From positions 434,001-498,000 of the forward strand of contig NZ_JAAVUW010000001.1 in the NCBI RefSeq assembly GCF_018449605.1: a stretch of DNA of 64,000 nt, written 5' to 3'. The position numbers and the translations under genes were made by a program. The DNA comes from Luteibacter sp. dw_328. Lineage in GTDB: Bacteria > Pseudomonadota > Gammaproteobacteria > Xanthomonadales > Rhodanobacteraceae. The notes below the pieces were generated by a model, which searched no databases, was not told the origin of the DNA, and saw nothing but the letters and a program-made list of their open reading frames with translations. Shown here piece by piece: positions 2,053-63,351 of the stretch. Positions within the stretch are counted from its first letter, which is position 1, and each line of letters begins with the position of its first letter.

Positions 2053-2514
2053 ATGGCCGCGCCTGTCCCTCCGTTCAATCACGAATCCGCCGTGCAGAAG
2101 GTCCGTCTTGCCGAAGACGGCTGGAATAGTCGCGACCCTGCAAGGGTGGCCCTCGCTTACACCGTCGACAGCCAGTGGCGGAATCGCGCCGAGTTCGTCA
2201 CCGGCCGCGAGGCAGTCGTCGCCTTCCTTACGCGCAAGTGGCAGAAAGAGCAGGATTACCGGTTGATCAAGGAGCTGTGGGCCTTTACCGGCGATCGCAT
2301 CGCCGTGCGCTTCGCCTATGAATGGCACGACGACAGCGGTAACTGGTTCCGCTCCTACGGTAACGAGAACTGGGAGTTCGACGCCGCGGGCGAGATGCAC
2401 CATCGCTATGCATGCATCAACGATCTCCCCATCGCCGAGAGCGAGCGCAAGTTCCACTGGCCGCTGGGACGTCGCCCGGATGATCACCCGGGTCTTTCCG
2501 ACCTGGGACTCTGA
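2053..2514 (+). CDS. SnoaL-like / DUF1348 family protein
   Basis: A 153-residue cytoplasmic protein of the nuclear-transport-factor-2-like fold (DUF1348). Recognisable segments are the N-terminal [18 protein letters not shown], the WRNRAEF...GREAVVAFL motif and [23 protein letters not shown], all typical of this family, whose biochemical role is not established. The ATG at 2053 is preferred over the more upstream frame start because it leaves the palindrome at 2001-2024 outside the gene. Its stop codon overlaps the TetR start by one base (TGATG), so the two are translationally coupled. The gene is probably the regulator's target. Confidence 0.85.
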
Positions 2515-3086
2515 TGGCCCGCGTCGTCTTCGAACGAGCCGATGTCATACCCCTGGTCGCGGATGCCTTCCGCGAGCTGGGGTATGACGGCGCGAGCATG
2601 AGTCGGATCACGGAGCGCACCGGGCTGGGCAAAAGCAGCCTTTATCATTTCTTCCCCGGCGGCAAGGAGGAGATGGCGGCAGTCGTGCTGGCCGATGTAG
2701 ACGACTGGTTCGAGCGACATATCTTCGTGACCTTGCGTGAGGGTGAGCCGCATGGGGCCATCGCCGCCATGTGGCGTGAGGTGGACAGGTATTTCCAGTC
2801 CGGAGGCCGCGTATGCCTGGTCGGGGCGTTCGCCCTGGACCAGACCCGCGATCGCTTCGCGACGGCGATATCCGGCTACTTCGTACGCTGGATCGAGGCG
2901 TTGGCATCGGCCCTGGTTCGACTGGGCCGAAGTGCGGAGGAGGCGAGCGAGCAGGCGGAGGATATCGTTCTCGGCATTCAGGGTGCGCTGATGCTGTCGC
3001 GTGCGAAACGCGACCCCGCATCGTTTCGCGCCGCGTTGCATCGGATGGCGCGCCGCCTCGGAACACCGCATCATGCCGACCTGTGA
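2514..3086 (+). CDS. TetR family transcriptional regulator
   Basis: 190 residues with an N-terminal TetR helix-turn-helix (about residues 8-55: FRELGYDGASMSRITERTGL then GKSSLYHFFPGGKEEM), close in style to the LmrA/YxaF subgroup, followed by a helical ligand-binding domain with no recognisable specificity. It is translationally coupled to the preceding SnoaL-like gene. The perfect palindrome at 2001-2024 upstream of the pair is its probable operator, so it most likely represses its own operon until an unknown small molecule binds. Confidence 0.92.
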   Translation: MARVVFERADVIPLVADAFRELGYDGASMSRITERTGLGKSSLYHFFPGGKEEMAAVVLADVDDWFERHIFVTLREGEPHGAIAAMWREVDRYFQSGGRVCLVGAFALDQTRDRFATAISGYFVRWIEALASALVRLGRSAEEASEQAEDIVLGIQGALMLSRAKRDPASFRAALHRMARRLGTPHHADL

Positions 3087-3104: not shown

Positions 3105-3656
3105 ATGAGCAAGGAAATCAAGCGCTGCACGTGGGCCGGTAGTGATCCGCTTTACACCGACTACCACGACAAGGAATGGGGCGTGCCCTTGCACGACTCG
3201 CGCATGTTGTGGGAACAGTTGATGCTGGAAGGCTTCCAGGCGGGCCTGGCGTGGATCACCGTGCTGCGCAAGCGCGAAACCTTCCGCAAGGCGTTCAAGG
3301 GGTTCGACCCGGCGAAGGTGGCGCGTTTTACCGAGAAAGACATCCTGCGCCTTCTGGAGGATCCGGGCATCATCCGTTCGCGTGCAAAGATCGAAGCGAC
3401 CATCAACGGTGCGCGCGTCTACGAAGAGATGAAGGCGCGCGGCGAGACCTTCGATGCCTATTGCTGGTCGTTTACCGAGGGCAAGGTATTGCGCGGCGAC
3501 GGACGCACGGTGCATGCACAGACGCCGTTGTCGGTGACGATCTCGAAGGACCTCAAGAAGCGCGGCTTCAAGTTCGTCGGTCCGACCATCACCTACGCCT
3601 GGATGCAGGCGGTCGGTATCGTCGACGACCACGCGCTCGGTTGTTTCCGGCGGTGA
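3105..3656 (+). CDS. tag: DNA-3-methyladenine glycosylase I
   Basis: 183 residues, normal length for Tag, which removes 3-methyladenine from alkylated DNA. The zinc ligands of the family are present: Cys8, His21, and His176 with Cys180 in the C-terminal HALGC motif. The start of the family (KRCTWAGSDPLYTDYHDKEWG) and the EGFQAGLAWITVL helix are plain. The ATG lies 18 bp after the TetR stop. The last 24 codons of this gene are matched by a decayed copy at 6904-6975, on the far side of the TonB receptor gene. Confidence 0.96.
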   Translation: MSKEIKRCTWAGSDPLYTDYHDKEWGVPLHDSRMLWEQLMLEGFQAGLAWITVLRKRETFRKAFKGFDPAKVARFTEKDILRLLEDPGIIRSRAKIEATINGARVYEEMKARGETFDAYCWSFTEGKVLRGDGRTVHAQTPLSVTISKDLKKRGFKFVGPTITYAWMQAVGIVDDHALGCFRR

Positions 3657-3680
3657 GTCGGTAAGGCAGGCGTTTTCACG

Positions 3681-3720
3681 GAAAAAGAAGTGACGCGCGG
3701 GTTGCCCCACGCGCCACTTC
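3681..3720 (-). terminator. rho-independent terminator of the TonB receptor gene
   Basis: Two 14-base arms (3687-3700 and 3707-3720) pair fully on the minus strand, counting two G-U wobbles; on the plus strand the same positions are A-C mismatches, so the hairpin serves minus-strand RNA. It is followed on that strand by a run of U residues (complement of GAAAAA at 3681-3686). It lies 29 bp beyond the receptor stop codon. Confidence 0.8.
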
Positions 3721-3748
3721 CTGAGACTTCAGACTTCGAACAGCCTGA

Positions 3749-6538
3749 TTACAGCTTGACCTTCACACCCAGGTTGAAGAACCGGCCGATAGCGCCGTCC
3801 TGGGCATACGTCGGGTTGTAGTTGACGCCGGCATAGTTGGCCACGTCCAGCGGCGCCTTTCGGTCGAACGCGTTCATGACCGAAGCGGTTACGGCGATCT
3901 TCGGTGTGAACTGGTAGCTGCTGGTGAGGTTGAATTCGGTGAACGAACCGACCGTGCAGCTGGAATAGCCATCGGGGATGCAGTCACTGCCATACACGTC
4001 CGGCGCCGTGTTCTTCATGCCACTGGTGTGATAGAAGGTCCCGGTGAGGGTGAGGTTGTTCCAGATCATGGTGTTCGACCACGACTCACGATATCGCGGC
4101 GTACCGGCGCCTGAAGACAGGTTGTAAGGACCGTGCGTGCCCGCGAACGATTCCACCGTGCCATCGGGCAGCGTCAGCCTCCAGGAAAAGATATCCGTAC
4201 CGCTGAAGTCGGAGATGTACTGGATACCGTTACCGAAGGTGAAATGCGCCTGCAGGTCGACATCCAGGCCATCGGTCTTCAGGGAGTTGGCATTGATGTA
4301 GCTTCCGATCACTTCGATCGGACGTGCCAGGGCGTTGGGATTGAGCGGATCGGGCTTATCGGCGATCACCTGCGTGCCCGCGGGCAAGGCCTGCCCCGCA
4401 TAGTACGCATCCAGAATCGAGCTCGGATCGGTCGATGTAATCACATCGGTTTTCTTGATGTGATAGTAGTCGAACGACGCATTCAGCCATGAGGTCGGCT
4501 GCAAGACGACGCCCAACGTATAGCTCTTCGCCCGCTCCGGCTTGATGGCCTTGTTGGCGTCGGTGAACTGGGCCAGCTGGTACGCCTGCACGTAGCCGTT
4601 GTTGCCATGTTCCGCAGCGAAGGATGCCGGCGGGTTGTACGTGACGAAACCTTCGTTGGAGCTCGAACCGTTCTCGGAGAAGCTCGGCGCACGCACACCC
4701 TTGGAGAACGTGCCGCGCACCGCCAGCCAGTCGAGCGGCTTCCACTTCAGACCCAGCTTGGGCGCGAACTCGGTGCCGATATCCGAATAATGATCGACGC
4801 GGCCGGACAAGTCCGCCTCCAGCGATTCGAGCAAGGGCGCGTCGAACTCGAGGTACGCGCCTTCGACATCGCGGCTACCCTTGGTCTGCGCATTGCCCAG
4901 GCCCTGGAACTCGTTACCCGGATTCAGTGAGGGATCGTTCTGTGCTTCGTGGCGCAGTTGGATACCCGCTGCCACACCCAGCGCGCCACCGGGCAAGTCG
5001 AACAAGCTGCGATTGGCGGCGAGGTCGACGGCATCAAGGTCCGAGGTCGAGGTCTTGTTGTAGCCCGGCGCCAGGGAGTTACGTACCGCCGAACTGTTCG
5101 ACGCCGGATTGAGGAAATTGTAACTGCCGGTGTTGATCGCGTTGATCAGGCCGGCGTACTGCAGGTAACCGTACAGCTGGGTATCCAGGCTGGTGTGGTT
5201 GAGGACGAGTGCCGCGTCGTAGTTCCATTCGCCCCATGTGCCTGCGACATCGCCAACAATGCGAAGGTTGTGATTATCGTAGGTGCCACCGCGGGGGATA
5301 TCGCCGAACGCGTAGTTGAGCAGCGCCGCCTGGCCACTCGACGCGAACGGATTGTTCGGGTTGAGGCTGCCATTGCTCAGATACACCGGCAAGGCAATAT
5401 TGTTGGTGTTGTTTGGCGTCGAACTCTGGATCTGGGCCGGGGCGGCGACCGCATCCGTTTTCGTCTCCATGTAGCTGAGCGACACGTACGCTTTGGTGGT
5501 GTCGTTGATCTTCACGGTGAAGCGGCCATAGACGCCGCCTTCCTTCGTCTTGGCCTGGATCTGGGTGTACTGCGCCGTCGTGTTCTGCTGGCAGTAGGTA
5601 CCCGACTTATCGGTGGTAAGGGTGCCTTTGGCGCCGCAGCCACCCGTCAGCAGGCTGGCGGTGGCACCGTCGTTCGGAATACCCGTCGTGACGTCGCCTG
5701 GCGTACCCAGCGTGCCGGGCGTCACCGAACCGTAGATCGAACCTGAGCCGTTGGCCGGCTGACCCGCCTGGAGATTGGCGCCGCCGATGCGACTCAGGTC
5801 CTCGGTGTTGTAAGGAAAACTGCGGTCACCCGCCTGGATCGCGTTGTCCTCTTCAAACTGCGCGCTGAAGTAAGCGTTGTAACCGTCCTTGTTCAGATCG
5901 CCGCCGCCAGCAAGGAAGGTACCCTTGCGCGTAAAGCCACCACCGTGGGCAGAGTTGCCGACGTCAGCCGACGCTTCCACACCCTGGTAGCCAGGTTTGA
6001 GGATCACGTTGACCACACCGGCGATGGCATCGGCGCCGTACAGCGAGGAGGCGCCGTCCTTCAGCACTTCAATGCGGTCGACCGCGGCCAGCGGGATCGT
6101 ATTCAGATCGACGAAGGAGCGCTCGCCATCGTCGGCGACGGCATAGTTGGCGGCACGATGGCCGTCGATCAGTACCAGGGTGGAGTTCACCGTCAGGCCA
6201 CGCAGGGCCACACCCGACGAGCCTGCGGCAAAGCCGTTGGTGAAGGCGTTCGGAATGGAACCACTGTTGTCGGCGGAGATAGAACGCACCACGTCGGAAA
6301 TGGTGGTGTAGCCGCTGCGGGCGATGTCCTTGGCCGAGATCGTGGTCACCGGCGAAGCGGTTTCCGTATCGATACGCGGAATGGCCGAGCCGGTCACCGT
6401 AATGGTCTGCAGGGTGCTGGGGTTGGTGCTGGTGTCCTGCGGGGCCGCATCAGTGCTGGCGGCCTGTGCCCACGCGGTACTTGCGACCGGAGTGAGAAGG
6501 AGCGTGGCCAAGGCGCACGCGAGCTTGTTACGTTTCAT
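3749..6538 (-). CDS. TonB-dependent outer membrane receptor
   Basis: 929 residues from the ATG at 6538; that start gives a clean Sec signal peptide (KRNK, then a hydrophobic run, ending in AWAQA near residue 26). After it come a TonB-box-like segment QTITVTG (about 44-50), the plug domain (about 60-175, with VALRGL, STLVLIDGHR, RIEVLKDGASSLYG) and a long beta-barrel ending in FNLGVKVKL. These proteins import scarce substrates through the outer membrane with TonB-ExbBD energy. The substrate is not evident; the upstream cupin-like gene on the same strand suggests the carbohydrate- or peptide-uptake receptors common in Xanthomonadales. A terminator follows. A 440-bp leader separates it from the cupin gene. 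Confidence 0.93.
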   Translation of the reverse strand: MKRNKLACALATLLLTPVASTAWAQAASTDAAPQDTSTNPSTLQTITVTGSAIPRIDTETASPVTTISAKDIARSGYTTISDVVRSISADNSGSIPNAFTNGFAAGSSGVALRGLTVNSTLVLIDGHRAANYAVADDGERSFVDLNTIPLAAVDRIEVLKDGASSLYGADAIAGVVNVILKPGYQGVEASADVGNSAHGGGFTRKGTFLAGGGDLNKDGYNAYFSAQFEEDNAIQAGDRSFPYNTEDLSRIGGANLQAGQPANGSGSIYGSVTPGTLGTPGDVTTGIPNDGATASLLTGGCGAKGTLTTDKSGTYCQQNTTAQYTQIQAKTKEGGVYGRFTVKINDTTKAYVSLSYMETKTDAVAAPAQIQSSTPNNTNNIALPVYLSNGSLNPNNPFASSGQAALLNYAFGDIPRGGTYDNHNLRIVGDVAGTWGEWNYDAALVLNHTSLDTQLYGYLQYAGLINAINTGSYNFLNPASNSSAVRNSLAPGYNKTSTSDLDAVDLAANRSLFDLPGGALGVAAGIQLRHEAQNDPSLNPGNEFQGLGNAQTKGSRDVEGAYLEFDAPLLESLEADLSGRVDHYSDIGTEFAPKLGLKWKPLDWLAVRGTFSKGVRAPSFSENGSSSNEGFVTYNPPASFAAEHGNNGYVQAYQLAQFTDANKAIKPERAKSYTLGVVLQPTSWLNASFDYYHIKKTDVITSTDPSSILDAYYAGQALPAGTQVIADKPDPLNPNALARPIEVIGSYINANSLKTDGLDVDLQAHFTFGNGIQYISDFSGTDIFSWRLTLPDGTVESFAGTHGPYNLSSGAGTPRYRESWSNTMIWNNLTLTGTFYHTSGMKNTAPDVYGSDCIPDGYSSCTVGSFTEFNLTSSYQFTPKIAVTASVMNAFDRKAPLDVANYAGVNYNPTYAQDGAIGRFFNLGVKVKL

Positions 6539-6900
6539 GATCACGACCCTTATGCTTATTTCAGGCAATGCGAGCTCGCCCCGACACGGTGGTCAGGTGG
6601 CTGAAGGCATTGGTAATAACGAGGTCGTTAGTAGGGGAAGGCCTCGTCTGAGATCGAGTCTTTCATCATCACCAGGCGTATACAAGCAATTAACACGCGC
6701 GCTAAGACTTGCGGCTGAGTGCTCGTTTTTATGCAGATCGCAGGGGTGTGCGAATGAGCGGATGGCGAATCAGCAGCCTTATCCGTGCGTTACCGATGCG
6801 TCTCGTAATATGTAATTTTTCCGCCGCCTCGAAATCCCACGTTGGTTTCGTTTTCATTTCGGCTAAATGAATGGTTGGCAACGGGGCGTTGAACTGAGAC
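6539..6900. promoter_or_regulatory. AT-richer intergenic leader of the TonB receptor
   Basis: This stretch has no convincing gene. It is visibly richer in A/T than its surroundings (for example 6800-6870 has runs of T and ATGTAATTTTT), as expected for the promoter region of the minus-strand receptor. I could not pick one promoter with confidence. No repeat or hairpin stands out. Confidence 0.4.
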
Positions 6901-6903
6901 ACG

Positions 6904-6975
6904 AATGTCACCTGCGCGTAAATGCAGGAAGTGGACATCGTCGATGACCACGCGCTCGGTCAATTCAGGCGGTGA
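6904..6975 (+). pseudogene. decayed 3' fragment of a tag gene
   Basis: Twenty-four codons line up without a gap with the last 24 codons of tag (3585-3656): 55 of 72 bases match by my count, including the IVDDHALG block and the terminal FRR-stop. The Trp codon just before the Met is TAA here, and the zinc-ligand Cys of HALGC is Gln, so this piece cannot encode a working enzyme. Similarity continues a few bases past the stop (GTAAG). The cupin-like gene ends head-on into it at 6977. It looks like a leftover from insertion or recombination at the tag 3' end. Confidence 0.8.
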
Positions 6976-6976
6976 C

Positions 6977-7933
6977 TCAGTAAGAGCCGGGCGGGGCCTT
7001 CTCGCCGAGCCAGCCTTCCTCGGGGCGCTTGTGCGCTTTCAGTCCCTGCCAGAAGGTCAGCGCGCGCAGCGTCCATTGCCGGCTGATCGCCAGGGCAAGT
7101 CCCAGCGGCACTTTCAGGGCATCGCGTAGAGGCGACACACCCGGATACGTCGGCGTGACGCGCAGGTATTTCCTGCATACGCGGTTGAACTGATGCACAC
7201 GGGCGAGATGCACCGTGTGCTTCGTATAGAAGGTGACACCGATGGAGACGGACACGCCGTCGCCCGGTGTCGCCCAGTCCGTGGTGGTTCGGGTCATGTG
7301 GGGGGAGGTGGTCGGGAAGTACACGCCGTCGCCGGGCCCGCTATCGAACTCATGGCTCGATGCGAGCGAGGAATCCTTGAGCTTCACATCGCGCAGCGTG
7401 TGGCTCACGATGAAGTCTTCGACGTGGGCGGCGGTAACGGCATCGCGGTCGGTTGGCTCCCAGACGCTAAGCACCTTCCTGCCATGCAACTGGAGCCAGA
7501 AATTGTTCTCGCGATCGATGTGGAAGGGCGTGACCGACGGCGGCGCGGAGATAAAGATGAATCCGGTGACGTTGAAAATGCCCGGCTGCTCGCGCTCGAT
7601 CGTTGCCCGTACGCCGTCGATGATGGCTTCGAGCAGCGCGCGGTATCGCGGTATCGCCTCCACGTTATAGAGCGCAATCCACGAGCCGGTCTCTTCGATT
7701 CGCTCGAAGACGTCGTCGATATCGCGTCCGTCCGGATGCCGTGCGTCGTGGCGGAACGCCGAGGCCTGGGTCATGCCGGGCTTGACGAACCGGCACTTCT
7801 CCAGCGGCATGAGTTCCTTCGCCAGCCGTGCGAGCGCCGGTAACTGGAACAGGGGATGTTTATCGAAATCGTGGCGCAGCCGGTTGATCCGGTGCGTCGA
7901 GAATCCCTGTGGGTCGAGAGGCTGTACGCCCAT
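6977..7933 (-). CDS. cupin-like (JmjC/Cupin_8) domain protein
   Basis: 318 residues from the ATG at 7933, which has a GGGAG ribosome site upstream; an in-frame start at 7975 exists but lacks one. The double-stranded beta-helix carries a metal-binding HxD (His138-Ile-Asp140 in TPFHID), the NNFWLQLHGRKVLSVWEP segment and a distal His212 in SPHMT, as in Fe(II)/2-oxoglutarate-type cupin_8 proteins. Genes of this kind are often found beside TonB receptors in Xanthomonadales and Caulobacterales; their reaction is mostly unknown. The TonB receptor lies downstream on the same strand after a 440-bp gap that holds the tag fragment. Confidence 0.85.
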   Translation of the reverse strand: MGVQPLDPQGFSTHRINRLRHDFDKHPLFQLPALARLAKELMPLEKCRFVKPGMTQASAFRHDARHPDGRDIDDVFERIEETGSWIALYNVEAIPRYRALLEAIIDGVRATIEREQPGIFNVTGFIFISAPPSVTPFHIDRENNFWLQLHGRKVLSVWEPTDRDAVTAAHVEDFIVSHTLRDVKLKDSSLASSHEFDSGPGDGVYFPTTSPHMTRTTTDWATPGDGVSVSIGVTFYTKHTVHLARVHQFNRVCRKYLRVTPTYPGVSPLRDALKVPLGLALAISRQWTLRALTFWQGLKAHKRPEEGWLGEKAPPGSY

Positions 7934-8080
7934 GTTGATCGCTCCCCTGATGGCCAGAGCCGCCCTGCCAGGCATAGGAGAAGCGTCGTACTAACTTGCG
8001 GGCTTCGCTATCGGGCGCACGGTCTAACCGCAAGGTATTGCGTAAATCTACGGAGTGATCTGCCTCCGGCACGAAAACGG

Positions 8081-37195: not shown

Positions 37196-37975
37196 GTGAC
37201 CAACGAAAACTCAACGAATAACATGGCGAAGATCGCCATCATTACCGGCGGCAGCCGTGGCATCGGCCGCAGCACCGTGGTCCACCTGGCGGCGCGCGGC
37301 GTCGATAGCATCTTCACCTACCGCGAGAATCAGGCAGAAGCGGCGAAGGTTGTTGCGGCGGTGGAAGCGCAGGGAAGGCGAGCTATCGCGCTTCAGCTGG
37401 ATACCGGTGTCGCGGCATCGTTCGCCGACTTCGTCGAACGCGCGAAGGCTGCGCTCGCTGAACTCGGGGCGCATCGCTTCGACTACCTGGTCAACAACGC
37501 GGGCCAGTCCCTGCACAAAGCCTTCGACCAGACGACGGAAGAGGAACTGGACGCCATTTACAACGTCCACTTCAAGGGCGTGTACCTGCTGACCCAGAAG
37601 CTGCTGCCGCTCATCGCGGACGGCGGGCGCATCATCAACATCTCGTCCGGCCTTGCGCGTGTGTCGATGCCTGGCAGCTCGGCGTATGGTGCGATGAAGG
37701 GCGCCGTCGAAGTGCTGACACGCTATATGGCCGCAGAGCTCGGCCCCCGTGGCATCGCCGTGAACACGGTGGCGCCGGGTGCCGTGGCCACCGACTTCAG
37801 CGGTGGCATGGTGCGTGACACCCCCGAGCTGGCCAAGCGCATTTCCGACATGACCGCCCTGGGTCGCGTGGGATTGCCGGACGACCTCGGCGCGATGATC
37901 TCTTCGCTGCTGTCGGACGATAACCGCTGGATCAGCGGTCAGCGCATCGAGGTATCCGGCGGCATGCTGGTTTAA
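37196..37975 (+). CDS. short-chain dehydrogenase/reductase
   Basis: 259 residues from a GTG at 37196, selected for the GAAGGAC ribosome site 6 bases before it; the ATG at 37223 is the alternative. TGGSRGIG cofactor motif, NNAG, Ser in NISSGLA and YGAMK (Tyr-x-x-x-Lys) are all present, so it should be active with NADP(H). It belongs to the 3-oxoacyl reductase-like group; substrate unknown. Its stop overlaps that of the convergent MFS gene in a shared TTAA. Confidence 0.9.
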   Translation: MTNENSTNNMAKIAIITGGSRGIGRSTVVHLAARGVDSIFTYRENQAEAAKVVAAVEAQGRRAIALQLDTGVAASFADFVERAKAALAELGAHRFDYLVNNAGQSLHKAFDQTTEEELDAIYNVHFKGVYLLTQKLLPLIADGGRIINISSGLARVSMPGSSAYGAMKGAVEVLTRYMAAELGPRGIAVNTVAPGAVATDFSGGMVRDTPELAKRISDMTALGRVGLPDDLGAMISSLLSDDNRWISGQRIEVSGGMLV

Positions 37976-43922: not shown

Positions 43923-44971
43923 ACCTTGTCGACGTCGATGATCGCTTTGGCGAACGCCTGCGGTGCCTCTTGCGGCAGGTTGTGCCCGATGCCGCCGGTG
44001 ATCAGTCGGTGCTCGTATTTGCCGGTGAACTTCTTCGCATAATTGGCGGGATCCGGATGCGGTGCACCATTGGCGTCGCCTTCCATCGTGATCGTCGGTA
44101 TGCCGATGGACGGGAACGTGGCGAGCTTCGCTTCCAGCGCGTCGAACTGCGGCTCACCCTCCGCAAGGCCAAGGCGCCAGCGATAGTTGTGGATCGATAC
44201 CGCAACATGGTCGGGGTTGGTGAAGGCAGGTGCCGAGCGTTCGAATGTCGCGTCGTCGAAGTGCCACTGAGGTGACGCCTGTTCCCAGATCAGGCGGACG
44301 AAATCCCGCGTGTGCTGGGCATAGCCGTCGCGCCCCCGCTCGGTGGCGAAATAGAACTGATACCACCACTGCAGTTCCGCTTTCGGCGGCAGCGGCTTCT
44401 TGTTCGCCTCCTGGCTGCCGATGAGGTAGCCGCTCACGGAGACCATCGCCTTGCAGCGCTCGGGCCAGAGCGCGGCCATGATATTGACCGTGCGGGCGCC
44501 CCAGTCGAAGCCGCCGAGGGTGGCTTTCTTGATCTTGAGGGCATCCATCAAGGCAAGGATGTCGGCGGCGATCGCAGCCTGCTGGCCGTTGCGCGGGGTA
44601 TCTGCCGAAAGGAACGTCGTGCTGCCATAACCACGGAGGAAGGGAACGATCACCCGGTATCCCGCTGCCGCGAGGATCGGGGCGACATCCACGAAGCTAT
44701 AGATGTCGTAGGGCCAGCCATGGACGAGAATGACCACCGGCCCCCTGGCCGGGCCGTCTTCGGCGTAACCGATATCGAGGACGCCGGCCTTGACCTGCTT
44801 GAGGCTGTGGAACGATGTCGCTCCGGCGAGGGGTGTCGTTCCGGTGGCCGGCGCTGGAACCGTGCCGGGTTTCGAGCTGGCAATAGCGTTCATCCCGAAC
44901 GGGGCGAACGCCATGCCCAGGGCCGTGGCACCGACAAAATGCCGCCGTTTCCGATCGAGTTCATCCGACAT
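43919..44971 (-). CDS. alpha/beta hydrolase, epoxide hydrolase-like, Tat-exported
   Basis: 350 residues from the ATG at 44971 with AGGAGG upstream. The N-terminus DRKRRHFVGATALGMAF is a twin-arginine signal, so the enzyme is probably exported folded. Core motifs: HGWP oxyanion turn (84-87), a nucleophile elbow GFDWGAR with Asp156 (Asp rather than Ser, as in epoxide hydrolases and haloalkane dehalogenases), and the base His in GIGHNLPQE. Substrate unknown. The open frame reaching 45490 crosses the divergent RraB gene and is not coding. Confidence 0.87.
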   Translation of the reverse strand: MSDELDRKRRHFVGATALGMAFAPFGMNAIASSKPGTVPAPATGTTPLAGATSFHSLKQVKAGVLDIGYAEDGPARGPVVILVHGWPYDIYSFVDVAPILAAAGYRVIVPFLRGYGSTTFLSADTPRNGQQAAIAADILALMDALKIKKATLGGFDWGARTVNIMAALWPERCKAMVSVSGYLIGSQEANKKPLPPKAELQWWYQFYFATERGRDGYAQHTRDFVRLIWEQASPQWHFDDATFERSAPAFTNPDHVAVSIHNYRWRLGLAEGEPQFDALEAKLATFPSIGIPTITMEGDANGAPHPDPANYAKKFTGKYEHRLITGGIGHNLPQEAPQAFAKAIIDVDKV

Positions 44972-45115
44972 CGCTGGCCCTCCTGAAAACACTGGAAAAC
45001 CCACGATAACGTCGCCACGCACCGGGTGATTGCATGCAACACTTCGACAGGTACAGCCGGATACAAAAAGTCGTCTTCGCAGTATCCTGCGTCGCTTCTT
45101 ACAGGAAATGCCGCC

Positions 45116-45472
45116 GTGATCGAGAAAAAACAGCTTGAGTTGATGTTCGAACAGATCGCCGACAACACCGACTGGGACCTGTCCGCACCGCTGATCTGGG
45201 GTTTCTTCTTCACCGACGCCTCGGCTGAAAAACTTCGTGCCGTCGTGCCCGCCCTCGAACAGGACGGCTACCGCTTCGTCGACGTCTTCCTGGCCGACAA
45301 GGACGAGCCAGCCGTCGCGGACCTGTGGATGCTCCACGTCGAGAAAATCGAAGTGCATACGCCGGACAGTCTCGACCAGCGCAACGACGCCTTGTACCGG
45401 TTTGCCGCCGAACACGAACTGGGTGCGTACGACGGTATGGATGTCGCTCCGGTCGATGCCGAGGAAGACTGA
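45116..45472 (+). CDS. ribonuclease E inhibitor RraB family protein
   Basis: 118 residues from a GTG at 45116 with AGGAAA 9 bases before it. It shows the RraB/DUF1260 pattern: WDLSAPLIWGFFFTDASAEKL, GYRFVDVF, LWMLHVEKIEVHTPDSLDQRNDALYRFA and an acidic C-terminus (GMDVAPVDAEED). RraB binds RNase E and alters its activity; other members of the fold are uncharacterised. It is divergent from the epoxide-hydrolase gene. Confidence 0.82.
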   Translation: MIEKKQLELMFEQIADNTDWDLSAPLIWGFFFTDASAEKLRAVVPALEQDGYRFVDVFLADKDEPAVADLWMLHVEKIEVHTPDSLDQRNDALYRFAAEHELGAYDGMDVAPVDAEED

Positions 45473-45490
45473 CCGGCGATCACCCATCAT

Positions 45491-45506
45491 GTGAAGGCGC
45501 CTTCAC
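45491..45506. promoter_or_regulatory. perfect 16-bp palindrome upstream of the PAS hybrid kinase
   Basis: GTGAAGGCGCCTTCAC is perfectly self-complementary. It lies 18 bp after the RraB-like stop and 33 bp before the kinase start. Candidate operator; no T-run, so not a terminator. Confidence 0.5.
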
Positions 45507-45539
45507 GGGGCGCCAGACGAGAGGCAGTACCTTCGCACC

Positions 45540-47480
45540 ATGCATACCCCCACCTCTTCCGTGACCATGGACGATTCCGCTTACCGTCGTCTGGTCGAAG
45601 GCATCTCTGACTACGCGATCTTCTGGCTTCAGCCGGGGGGCACCGTGGCCACGTGGAATGCCGGCGCCTTCCATGCGACCGGATATACCGCCGATGACAT
45701 GGTCGGCGCACCGTTCTCCTTGCTCTTCTCTGGCGACGACAGCGCGGCGGGAGTGGCCGACACCTTGCTGAAGGTGGCACTAAGCGAAGGACGTAGCGAA
45801 CTCGACGGTTGGCTGGTTCGCAAGGACGGCTCGCGGTTCTGGGCGCAGATCCTGGTTGACCCGGTGCGCGATGACGACCGGCCGCTCGGCTTCGGCGTGG
45901 TGATGCGCGACCGCACGGAACGCAAGCGCGTCGAGGAAGAACTGCGGAGGAGCCAGGAGCAGTTTCGTGTGCTGGTTCAGGGCGTGGCCGACTACGCCAT
46001 CTACATGCTGGATCCGGGCGGACACGTGACGAGCTGGAATTCCGGTGCCGAGCGCATCAAGGGATACACGCCCGACGAGGTCATAGGACGTCACTATTCG
46101 GCCTTCTTCACCCGCGAAGATGTTGCCCGCGGTGAACCGATGACGAACCTGGCCGCCGTGGTACGCGAGGGGCGCATCGAAACCGAGGGCTGGCGACAGC
46201 GCAAGGACGGCAGCCGCTTCTGGGCGCACGTGGTCATCGACCGTATTACGGACGACGCCGGCGAGCTGATCGGATTTGCGAAGGTCACGCGCGACGTTAC
46301 CGAACGGCGTGCGGCTGCCCTTGCACTGGAAGAAGCCCGTGAAGCGTTGTTCCAGTCGCAGAAGCTCGAGGCAGTCGGCCAGCTCACGGGGGGTGTCGCG
46401 CACGACTTCAACAACCTGCTGATGGCGGTGCAGGGCAATCTGGAATTGATGCGTGACCACGCCGAACTGCCCGAGCGGCTCAATCGCCTCGTGGGCAACG
46501 CATTGACCGGTGTGCGGCGTGGCGTGACCCTGACGCAGCGCATGCTCGCCTTTGCGCGCCGGCAGCAGCTGCACGTCGAACCGGTCAACGTGGTCACGCT
46601 GATATCGGGCATGTCGGATCTCCTTCGAACCTCGCTGGGTCCGTCGATCGCGATCGAAGTCCGCTTTCCGCTGTCACTGCCCGAGGTGATGGGTGACATC
46701 AACCAGCTGGAGCTCTGCGTCCTCAACCTCTGCGTCAACGCGCGTGACGCGATGGCCGAGGGTGGCGTGATCACCATTCGTGCCGTGACTGACGAGGTTA
46801 TCCACTCGCAGACCCTTGCTATTCCGTCCGGCAGGTATGTGAAGCTCTCGATCGCCGACACCGGCAGCGGCATGGATGCCGCGACGCTTGCGCGGGCGAC
46901 GGAGCCTTTTTTTACGACCAAGGGCGTTGGCAAAGGCACCGGCCTGGGCCTGTCCATGGTTCACGGGATCGCCCAGCAATTGGGTGGTGCGTTGCAACTG
47001 GAGAGCGGCGAGAGCACCGGCACGACCGTCACGATCTATCTCCCGGTCGCGCCGTCGGTGCCTGGCGCTCTCCAGGAAGTCGCCCCTGTCGTTCCCCAGC
47101 GCGCGATCCGGCACATTGCGGAAGAACAGGGGCCGTTGCCTGTGATTCTGGTCGTCGACGACGACCCGCTCGTGTTGTCCACGGCCGTCGAGATGCTCAA
47201 CTACGCGGGATACGATGCGCGTGGAGCTTCCTCGGGCCATGAAGCACTTCGACGGCTGGAAACGCTCGACGAACTCGTTGCCGTGGTGACGGATCACGCG
47301 ATGCCCGGCATGACCGGATCCGAATTGGCTGCCGAGCTTGCTAACCGCCGCCCGGGCCTGCGCGTGGTGCTGGCGAGCGGTTATGCCGAGCTGCCGGCGG
47401 TTTCCACCGGCATCGCCGTGCAGCTGCAGAAGCCGTTTGGTCGCGACGCCTTGCTGGCCGCCATTCGCGGCACGGGGTGA
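45540..47480 (+). CDS. soluble hybrid histidine kinase, PAS-PAS-HisKA-HATPase-REC
   Basis: 646 residues with no membrane segment. Two PAS domains (about 12-128 and 140-255; both have DYAI, a W-N motif and WxxRKDGSRFWA), HisKA with phospho-His288 in GGVAHDFNNLL, HATPase with NLCVNARDAM, DTGSGM and GTGLGLSMV, and a C-terminal receiver with DDDPLVL and a phosphoacceptor Asp near residue 584 (TDHAMPG). The twin PAS pattern resembles blue-light or redox-sensing kinases, but the LOV Cys motif is not seen. With a terminal receiver it needs an HPt partner; the HPt protein at 11467-12375 is a possible one. Confidence 0.92.
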   Translation: MHTPTSSVTMDDSAYRRLVEGISDYAIFWLQPGGTVATWNAGAFHATGYTADDMVGAPFSLLFSGDDSAAGVADTLLKVALSEGRSELDGWLVRKDGSRFWAQILVDPVRDDDRPLGFGVVMRDRTERKRVEEELRRSQEQFRVLVQGVADYAIYMLDPGGHVTSWNSGAERIKGYTPDEVIGRHYSAFFTREDVARGEPMTNLAAVVREGRIETEGWRQRKDGSRFWAHVVIDRITDDAGELIGFAKVTRDVTERRAAALALEEAREALFQSQKLEAVGQLTGGVAHDFNNLLMAVQGNLELMRDHAELPERLNRLVGNALTGVRRGVTLTQRMLAFARRQQLHVEPVNVVTLISGMSDLLRTSLGPSIAIEVRFPLSLPEVMGDINQLELCVLNLCVNARDAMAEGGVITIRAVTDEVIHSQTLAIPSGRYVKLSIADTGSGMDAATLARATEPFFTTKGVGKGTGLGLSMVHGIAQQLGGALQLESGESTGTTVTIYLPVAPSVPGALQEVAPVVPQRAIRHIAEEQGPLPVILVVDDDPLVLSTAVEMLNYAGYDARGASSGHEALRRLETLDELVAVVTDHAMPGMTGSELAAELANRRPGLRVVLASGYAELPAVSTGIAVQLQKPFGRDALLAAIRGTG

Positions 47481-47484
47481 CGCC

Positions 47485-48117
47485 TCAGGGCTGATCCTGG
47501 GGCACCACGATCGCGGGCGCCTTCTTCATGCGTGCCAATAGCATGACGAAGAACGGCGTCACCATGAGCGGCAGATTACTCAAGCCGGGCCACCAGATGG
47601 CGATGACGATCGCCAGGGCCGCCATGCACGGCATGCCCAGGCTGCGGCGGATCGCGACAGCGACATCGTCCGTGGTGACATCGTCGTACAGATACGGCGG
47701 CCGGAGCGTGCGTTTGACCAAGCGGTACTGGCACAGGCCCGCTACCAGCAGGGTGAAGGCGTAGAACATCTGGGGCACGCGGTCGGTGAAGTGGGTGCTC
47801 ATCAACGCCGTCGGGAACGGGATGAAGGCAACCAGCATGAGCAAGGTCAGGTTTGGCCAGACGATGGCCGGATCGTAGTGGCGGAGTCGGCCGAAGGTGC
47901 GGTGATGCGCCGCCCAGAGGGCCCCGACGACGTAGAAGGTCAGGACGAAGCCGACAAAGTGGGGAATGAGGTTGGCCAGTGCCTGCACCCAGGCCTCGTC
48001 CGTGCTCACGGCCGGCTCCGGCACCTTGATGTCGATGACCAGCAAGGTCATGGCGATGGCGAAAACGGCGTCCGAGAAGAACGTGAGCCGTTCGACCTGT
48101 TGATCCTGATGCGACAT
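47485..48117 (-). CDS. TMEM175/DUF1211 family potassium channel-like membrane protein
   Basis: 210 residues from the ATG at 48117; the longer frame to 48213 has no family match. The first helix carries the RLTFFSDAVFAIAMTLL motif, the RxxxFSD signature of the TMEM175 family, which forms K+-selective channels with six helices per subunit; six hydrophobic helices are visible here. It is convergent with the hybrid kinase (4 bp apart) and divergent from yaeQ. Confidence 0.9.
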   Translation of the reverse strand: MSHQDQQVERLTFFSDAVFAIAMTLLVIDIKVPEPAVSTDEAWVQALANLIPHFVGFVLTFYVVGALWAAHHRTFGRLRHYDPAIVWPNLTLLMLVAFIPFPTALMSTHFTDRVPQMFYAFTLLVAGLCQYRLVKRTLRPPYLYDDVTTDDVAVAIRRSLGMPCMAALAIVIAIWWPGLSNLPLMVTPFFVMLLARMKKAPAIVVPQDQP

Positions 48118-62577: not shown

Positions 62578-63351
62578 TCACGGTCGACCCGCCGTGACGC
62601 CACCATCGACGGGAAGTACGGTTCCGGTGATCCACGACGCGGCGTCGGACGCGAGGAAGAGCACGGCCTCGGCGACATCGCGTGGCTGTCCGTTACGGCC
62701 GAGTGGATGGAAAGCATTGAAGCCGGGCAGGGTCGCAGCGACTTCGTCGTCCGACATGAAGCTGTTGTAGACCGGCGTTTCCACGACGGCGGGCGCCACG
62801 GTATTGATGCGGATTTTTTCCGAGGCCAGTTCGATGGCGAGATTGCGGGTCAACGCATGCACCCCCGCATTCGCTGCCGAGTACGCGGCCGACGGCGTCG
62901 CGCCGATGGCCTGGATGGCCCAAAGCGAACCGATCTGCACGATGGCGCCACCCCCACGACGGATCATGGCCCGAGCGGCAGCCTGTGCCATGAAGAACTT
63001 GCCCTTCAGAATCGTATCCAGGAACCAGTCGTACTCGCCCGGTTCGACCTGCAGAAACGGTTTCGGGCGGAAGACACCGGCGTTGTTGACGAGGACGTCG
63101 ACGCCCCCGAAAGCGCGCGTCGCTTCATCCACGAGCGTCTGGGCCGTGAGGGGGTCGGCGATATCACCGGCAACCGTCCGGACCCTTACCCGGGAAGGGT
63201 CGATCGCTGCGGCAGCGGCCTCCAGTTTGGCCTCGTCCCGGCCACCGATCACAACGGATGCGCCAGCGGCGAAGAGCTGCTTCGCGACCTCTTTGCCGAT
63301 GCCGGAACTGCCGCCGGTGACGATGGCGACCTTGGAAGTGAAATCGTGCAT
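62578..63351 (-). CDS. short-chain dehydrogenase-like protein with altered active site
   Basis: 257 residues from the ATG at 63351 with AGGAGA upstream. SDR fold: TGGSSGIG (12-19), GGRDE after the second strand, NNAG (89-92), catalytic Ser142 and Tyr157. The expected Tyr-x-x-x-Lys reads YSAAN, with Asn161 in place of the catalytic Lys. It may have a changed activity or none. It is divergent from a LysR-type regulator (99 bp between starts) that probably controls it. Confidence 0.88.
   Translation of the reverse strand: MHDFTSKVAIVTGGSSGIGKEVAKQLFAAGASVVIGGRDEAKLEAAAAAIDPSRVRVRTVAGDIADPLTAQTLVDEATRAFGGVDVLVNNAGVFRPKPFLQVEPGEYDWFLDTILKGKFFMAQAAARAMIRRGGGAIVQIGSLWAIQAIGATPSAAYSAANAGVHALTRNLAIELASEKIRINTVAPAVVETPVYNSFMSDDEVAATLPGFNAFHPLGRNGQPRDVAEAVLFLASDAASWITGTVLPVDGGVTAGRP

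What the first reader, a model, noticed from the sequence alone, without database searches (positions are those of the whole stretch)
6904..6975. Decayed copy of the tag 3' end on the far side of the TonB receptor gene
Twenty-four codons at 6904-6975 align gap-free with the last 24 codons of tag (3585-3656), 55 of 72 bases matching, and a few bases past the stop agree too. The copy has an internal TAA at the Trp position and Gln for the zinc-ligand Cys. The receptor gene and its terminator and leader (about 3.2 kb) thus sit between two tag 3' ends. This suggests that the receptor entered by recombination or insertion at the tag 3' end, leaving the older end beside the cupin gene, or that a tag paralogue was largely deleted.
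Basis: partly seen in the sequence, partly recalled or inferred. Interest (0 to 1): 0.7.

Follow-up and report, generated by a model that had tools for sequence, protein, structure and literature searches.

The report
Insertion scar beside a repair gene
A short, decayed duplicate of the end of a DNA-repair gene most likely marks where an outer-membrane uptake-receptor gene was inserted in an ancestor of three Luteibacter species; it is a neat but ordinary trace of genome rearrangement.

Summary
Window 6904-6975 matches the last 24 codons of tag (3585-3656) at 55 of 72 bases. In its own 5.05-Mb genome tag is the only significant match (E 1.7e-12). Mismatches fall on all codon positions, so the copy is decayed.

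The genus is Luteibacter. In 8 of 23 genomes the cupin-like gene lies beside tag; in 5 of those 8 no receptor lies between, and in 4 of the 5 the two gene ends adjoin. The receptor lies between them only in G000 (this genome), G014 and G010, one clade. This supports one ancestral insertion of a cassette of about 3.2 kb, flanked by a 77-bp direct repeat of the tag end.

The full vestige survives only in G000. G010 keeps a 9-base tip in the predicted register; G014 shows nothing significant. Which copy is older cannot be decided. Tag shows no well-supported sign of a foreign origin. Deletion of a tag paralogue is unsupported.

An ordinary insertion scar; low interest.

The parts
3105..3656 (+). 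tag, DNA-3-methyladenine glycosylase I, 183 aa, intact
   Evidence: Pfam PF03352 E 1.1e-74; NCBIfam TIGR00624 tag E 4.3e-67 but just under its cut-off, 225.3 against 232.5 bits
3589..3665 (+). left copy of the direct repeat: tag 3' end plus 9 bases past the stop
   Evidence: blastn 79% over 77 bp against 6908-6984
3682..3722 (-). probable intrinsic terminator of the receptor gene: 17-pair hairpin then T-run; absent in G014 and G010
   Evidence: RNAfold -32.1 kcal/mol; the simple pattern scan did not list it; tag and receptor stops fused in G014 and nearly so in G010
3749..6538 (-). TonB-dependent outer-membrane receptor; start at the Met of MKRNKL is inferred (longest frame runs to 6568)
   Evidence: Pfam PF00593 E 2.7e-34 and PF07715 E 9.9e-23; orthologues 96% G014, 92% G010 at the same place, 86% in G004 and G015 at other places
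6539..6895 (-). upstream region of the receptor gene, part of the inserted cassette
   Evidence: aligns with G014 and G010 up to GTTGAAC at 6888-6894; only its gene-proximal part, to about 6696, matches G004 and G015 by blastn
6904..6975 (+). decayed copy of the last 24 codons of tag (significant match 6908-6984)
   Evidence: 55/72 identity; mismatches spread over codon positions 3/6/8
6977..7975 (-). cupin/JmjC-like protein gene, convergent with tag
   Evidence: Pfam JmjC_2 E 2.5e-5, above its cut-off, Cupin_8 below its cut-off; adjoins tag directly in G009, G003, G022 and G001

Best explanation
6908-6984 is the scar of an insertion. In the common ancestor of G000, G014 and G010, tag and the cupin-like gene ended tail to tail. 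A cassette of about 3.24 kb (terminator, TonB receptor gene, its upstream region) entered there, and the last 70-80 bp of tag, probably with the last few bases of the cupin gene, ended up on both sides of it. The copy joined to tag stayed under selection; the copy beside the cupin gene was free to decay. Shown: the repeat, the empty sites, the shared position of the receptor in one clade, the decay. Inferred: that all three share one event, and the mechanism, most likely single crossover of a molecule carrying a tag-end/receptor segment, or homology at one border with illegitimate joining at the other. Later G014 and G010, independently, lost most or all of the scar and the terminator.
For: Match far above chance. 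Eight of 23 Luteibacter genomes have the cupin gene beside tag; 5 of 8 lack a receptor between them, and in 4 of the 5 the aligned gene ends are 11-14 bp apart. Receptor at this place in 3 of 23, one clade, (G010,(G000,G014)), ultrafast bootstrap 100 and 97 in the rpoB tree. Tag trees hold the same three together, with no well-supported sign of a foreign tag. G010 has CGGCGCTGA, 9/9 with its own tag end, one base before the cupin stop, the register seen in G000; 0 of 69 cupin loci reach 8/9 there, best 7. In G010's 15-kb locus that 9-mer occurs 2 times in 29,984 positions, both strands. Unanchored, the G010 spacer resembles the G000 spacer at p 0.013. Vestige-tag distance 0.25-0.30 per site fits formation at or before the G000-G014 split (fourfold sites 0.45 for the pair). 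Nine of 17 mismatches fall outside third codon positions, against 0 of 5, 1 of 9 and 0 of 8 between functional tag ends.
Against: The full vestige is in 1 of 3 receptor-bearing genomes. G000 and G014 are sisters, so loss in G014 and in G010 must be two events, on both sides of the cassette. The G014 spacer does not resemble its own tag end (p 0.60), the G000 vestige (0.41) or the G000 spacer (0.44); the G010 spacer resembles its tag end only at p 0.034 and the G000 vestige at 0.117 when not anchored. G014 and G010 share a spacer block (18 of 21 bases, p 0.0005) not aligned in G000. A tag was found beside the receptor in none of 43 other receptor loci examined, with flanks of 1.5 kb. In the other 20 tag loci, including those with other genes at this spot, no hit to the tag end within 6 kb was better than E 0.007.
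Confidence: 0.7

Rival explanations
1. The receptor entered first and cleanly; the tag-end copy beside the cupin gene is a later, G000-only ectopic duplication or conversion from tag 3.3 kb away.
For: Full copy only in G000; G014 and G010 share a spacer block not aligned in G000. It needs no double loss in G014 and G010. Of five bases at which G000's tag end differs from both G014 and G010, the vestige shares two with G000, one with the others, two with neither (by eye).
Against: 9/9 tag tip in the expected register in G010; divergence of 0.25-0.30 is at least what one lineage since the G000-G014 split would give, though on only 69 sites.
Confidence: 0.2
2. The cassette is what is left of a larger element that integrated by a site-specific recombinase at the tag 3' end; the repeat is its decayed attachment-site pair.
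For: Integration at a gene's 3' end with a direct repeat that restores the end is the usual mark of such elements (recalled).
Against: The receptor gene fills nearly the whole insert (the other frames in it were not profile-searched). Flanks of the homologous receptors in G004 and G015 show no direct repeat better than E 0.018.
Confidence: 0.07
3. A second, complete tag paralogue stood beside the cupin gene and was deleted except for its last 24 codons.
For: Only that the vestige is a gene end in frame register.
Against: Receptor upstream sequence shared with G014 and G010 runs to 6894, about 13 bases before the vestige; no second tag in the 20 fetched tag loci of relatives; the tag protein matches only residues 161-183 there.
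Confidence: 0.03

Closest known systems
Integration by homology at one end and illegitimate joining at the other, or by single crossover (PMC3240628, abstract read)
   Same: Adds foreign DNA beside a homologous stretch; single crossover leaves that stretch on both sides (the latter recalled)
   Different: No donor molecule is known here; only the scar can be seen
Genomic islands integrated at gene 3' ends by tyrosine recombinases (recalled)
   Same: Direct repeat of the gene's 3' end at both borders, gene kept whole
   Different: No integrase seen, and a single receptor gene as the insert
Gene-end remnants left by recombination in bacterial genomes (recalled)
   Same: A short decayed gene end at a junction
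   Different: Nothing that sets it apart; here the empty site is also documented

Membership tests
Insertion scar with target duplication | Direct repeat of the target on both sides of the insert | tested here: met
   77 bp, 79% in G000
Insertion scar with target duplication | Relatives with an empty site carrying one copy | tested here: met
   G009, G003, G022, G001: tag and cupin 3' ends adjoin
Insertion scar with target duplication | Repeat present in all descendants of the insertion | tested here: inconclusive
   Full in G000, 9-base tip in G010, none significant in G014
Integrase-mediated genomic island | Integrase gene within the insert | tested here: not met
   The receptor gene fills nearly the whole insert; other frames there were not profile-searched
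Import of a donor tag end with the receptor | Tag tree discordant with the species tree for G000, G014, G010 | tested here: not met
   No well-supported conflict; G008/G013 are the sister group in the rpoB tree (91) and lie near in the FastTree tag tree. The iqtree tag tree is weak at that depth
Deleted tag paralogue | Further tag codons upstream of 6904, or a relative with two tags here | tested here: not met

The most novel reading that the evidence does not exclude
The tag 3' end is a recurrent landing place for single genes in Luteibacter (receptor, cupin, methyltransferase, TPR protein), with the tag end re-made on insertion each time by one recombination route.
Probability: 0.07. Interest if true: 0.4.

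Novelty: new member of a known kind. Interest (0 to 1): 0.22.

Why it matters
It places the entry of one outer-membrane receptor gene in a small Luteibacter clade and shows that a short decayed repeat can mark such an event. It says little beyond this locus.

Tried and rejected
Chance similarity: rejected. Donor tag end imported with the receptor: looked for by comparing tag trees with trees of rpoB (partial, about 3.4 kb) and of rpoB+OYE+tadA+sir2. The first FastTree tree, of OYE, tadA and sir2 alone, had put G000, G014 and G010 beside the G009 group (support 0.86), which would have made tag discordant; the rpoB tree (91) and the combined tree (79) put them beside G008/G013, so I dropped that idea. 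One search was a wrong tree (minus-strand rpoB loci not turned) and is discarded. Placement of the vestige on two base trees: flat, all 39 positions within 2.6 log-likelihood units on one and 1.6 on the other. Receptor loci elsewhere as donors: 46 receptor loci examined with flanks of 1.5 kb, paralogues at 34-65% identity included; a tag lay in 3 of 46, the three known. Not every receptor match was fetched. Other inserts at the tag end: in 20 other tag loci no hit better than E 0.007 (19 bases, in G015 and in G019), leaving aside the 15 post-stop bases of the query, which match themselves; G012 had only 1.1 kb of downstream sequence; the 9-base tip of G010 is below what this scan can see. Window control: 75-base 3' ends of 244 open frames of 120 or more codons; 7 non-self rows at E <= 1e-4. 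Two are tag in two frames. The other five rows are four pairs: 45780/46162-46228 lies within a gene that by eye is a sensor kinase with repeated domains; 26821/58673 has 5 matches elsewhere in the genome at E <= 0.01 and by eye is coding DNA of a response-regulator kind (not profile-searched); 37229-37267/63295-63333 and 37592/45575-45602 were not followed. No Rfam family in 3500-7100. No tandem repeat at 44500-47500. Literature: five searches, listings only except one abstract: 'Luteibacter' with 'TonB-dependent receptor' 3 papers, homology-facilitated illegitimate recombination with insertion and natural transformation 34, 'methyladenine glycosylase' with 'insertion hotspot' 0, Luteibacter with comparative genomics and horizontal gene transfer 17, gene-end repeats of islands 3; none was seen to treat this locus, and only the listed rows were looked at.

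Full report
What is there. Bases 6904-6975 match the last 24 codons of tag (3585-3656) at 55 of 72 positions. Blastn puts the borders at 3589-3665 and 6908-6984, 77 bp at 79%, E 3.5e-14 within the window. In the whole genome of 5,045,754 bases in 21 contigs the only significant match to this stretch besides itself is tag (E 1.7e-12; the next has E 0.44). The match goes on for 9 bases past the stop, 7 of 9; 4 of 11,991 positions nearby reach this, two of them being the site and its tag copy. So the repeat may include the last bases of the cupin gene, whose stop lies at 6977-6979.

It is decayed coding sequence. Against G000's tag, the 17 mismatches in 69 bases fall 3, 6 and 8 on codon positions 1, 2 and 3. 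Between functional tag ends they fall almost only on position 3: 0/0/5 (G014), 1/0/8 (G010), 0/0/8 (G008).

Relatives. Of 23 genomes held, 21 have tag in a block with tadA, sir2 and an old-yellow-enzyme gene; G011 and G017 have only a more distant tag. The cupin-like gene lies beside tag in 8 of 23. In four of these (G009, G003, G022, G001) the two gene ends adjoin; in G018 a 309-codon TPR-protein gene lies between. In G000, G014 and G010 the receptor gene lies between. Of 69 cupin loci from a genome scan, tag lay in the fetched flanks of 2, both Luteibacter (some loci are short). The receptor has orthologues at 86% identity in G004 and G015, away from tag and with different neighbours. Outside these five, the best match listed in 233 family genomes is 72%.

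Phylogeny. The rpoB tree groups G000 with G014 (97) and both with G010 (100); G008/G013 come next (91). The tag trees also hold the three together and show no well-supported conflict. So tag looks vertically inherited, and the receptor is best read as one insertion in the ancestor of the three.

The scar in the sister species. The G014 spacer between receptor and cupin gene does not resemble its tag end (p 0.60), the G000 vestige (0.41) or the G000 spacer (0.44). For G010 the unanchored values are 0.034, 0.117 and 0.013. But its last nine bases, CGGCGCTGA, equal its own tag end and stand one base before the cupin stop, just as in G000. At that offset 0 of 69 cupin loci reach 8 of 9 matches, the best having 7 (the 69 include G014 and L. 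yeojuensis). In G010's 15-kb locus this 9-mer occurs twice in 29,984 positions. I take this as the tip of the same scar. Against that, G014 and G010 share a block of 21 bases (18 identical) that is not aligned in G000, although G000 and G014 are sisters; I can explain this only by loss in G000. On the other side G014 and G010 also lack the receptor's terminator: in G014 the tag stop is followed at once by the receptor stop, in G010 a 16-base tandem copy of the tag tip lies there. By the tree these losses in G014 and G010 must be independent, which is a cost to the reading.

Age. Fourfold sites differ at 605 of 1777 between G000 and G014 (corrected 0.454, about 0.23 per lineage). The vestige-tag distance is 0.25-0.30, of which the slow tag side explains little. 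That suits formation at or before that split, with a large error from only 69 sites.

Mechanism. A direct repeat of a gene's end on both sides of an insert is what single crossover of a molecule carrying that end would leave (recalled), or homology at one border with illegitimate joining at the other, which is described in the abstract of PMC3240628. The receptor gene fills nearly the whole insert and no integrase was seen. No donor was found. Which of the two ends came in and which was resident cannot be told: the vestige is closest to G000's own tag (52 of 69), then G014 (51), G010 and G008 (48), and likelihood placement is flat.

Verdict. Observation confirmed; insertion supported; direction and mechanism open; paralogue deletion unsupported. 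While checking this report I moved 0.02 from the best explanation to the late-copy rival, because the sister relation of G000 and G014 makes the losses two events. This is an ordinary insertion scar with a well-documented empty site.

Noticed in passing
G006 (L128), G016 (L129), G021 (L125), G018 (L116), just past tag: Other genes occupy the space past tag: a methyltransferase in G006 and G021 (Pfam; overlapping the tag end in both) and a like frame in G016 (by eye), a TPR protein in G018. No vestige of the tag end beyond them.
   Followed up: partly
L112 (G010), cupin gene at 4636-5632: In G010 the cupin-like gene matches in two overlapping pieces in different frames, so it looks frameshifted there.
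   Followed up: no
L112 (G010), just past tag: A 16-base tandem copy of the tag tip separates tag from the receptor stop in G010.
   Followed up: partly
2514-3086: The TetR-type gene before tag gives no hit (E <= 1e-8) in 14 of 21 tag loci, G014 among them, where the DUF1348 gene directly precedes tag.
   Followed up: no
37229-37267 and 63295-63333; 37592 and 45575-45602: Short inverted matches between distant frame ends (82% over 39 bp; 93% over 28 bp).
   Followed up: no
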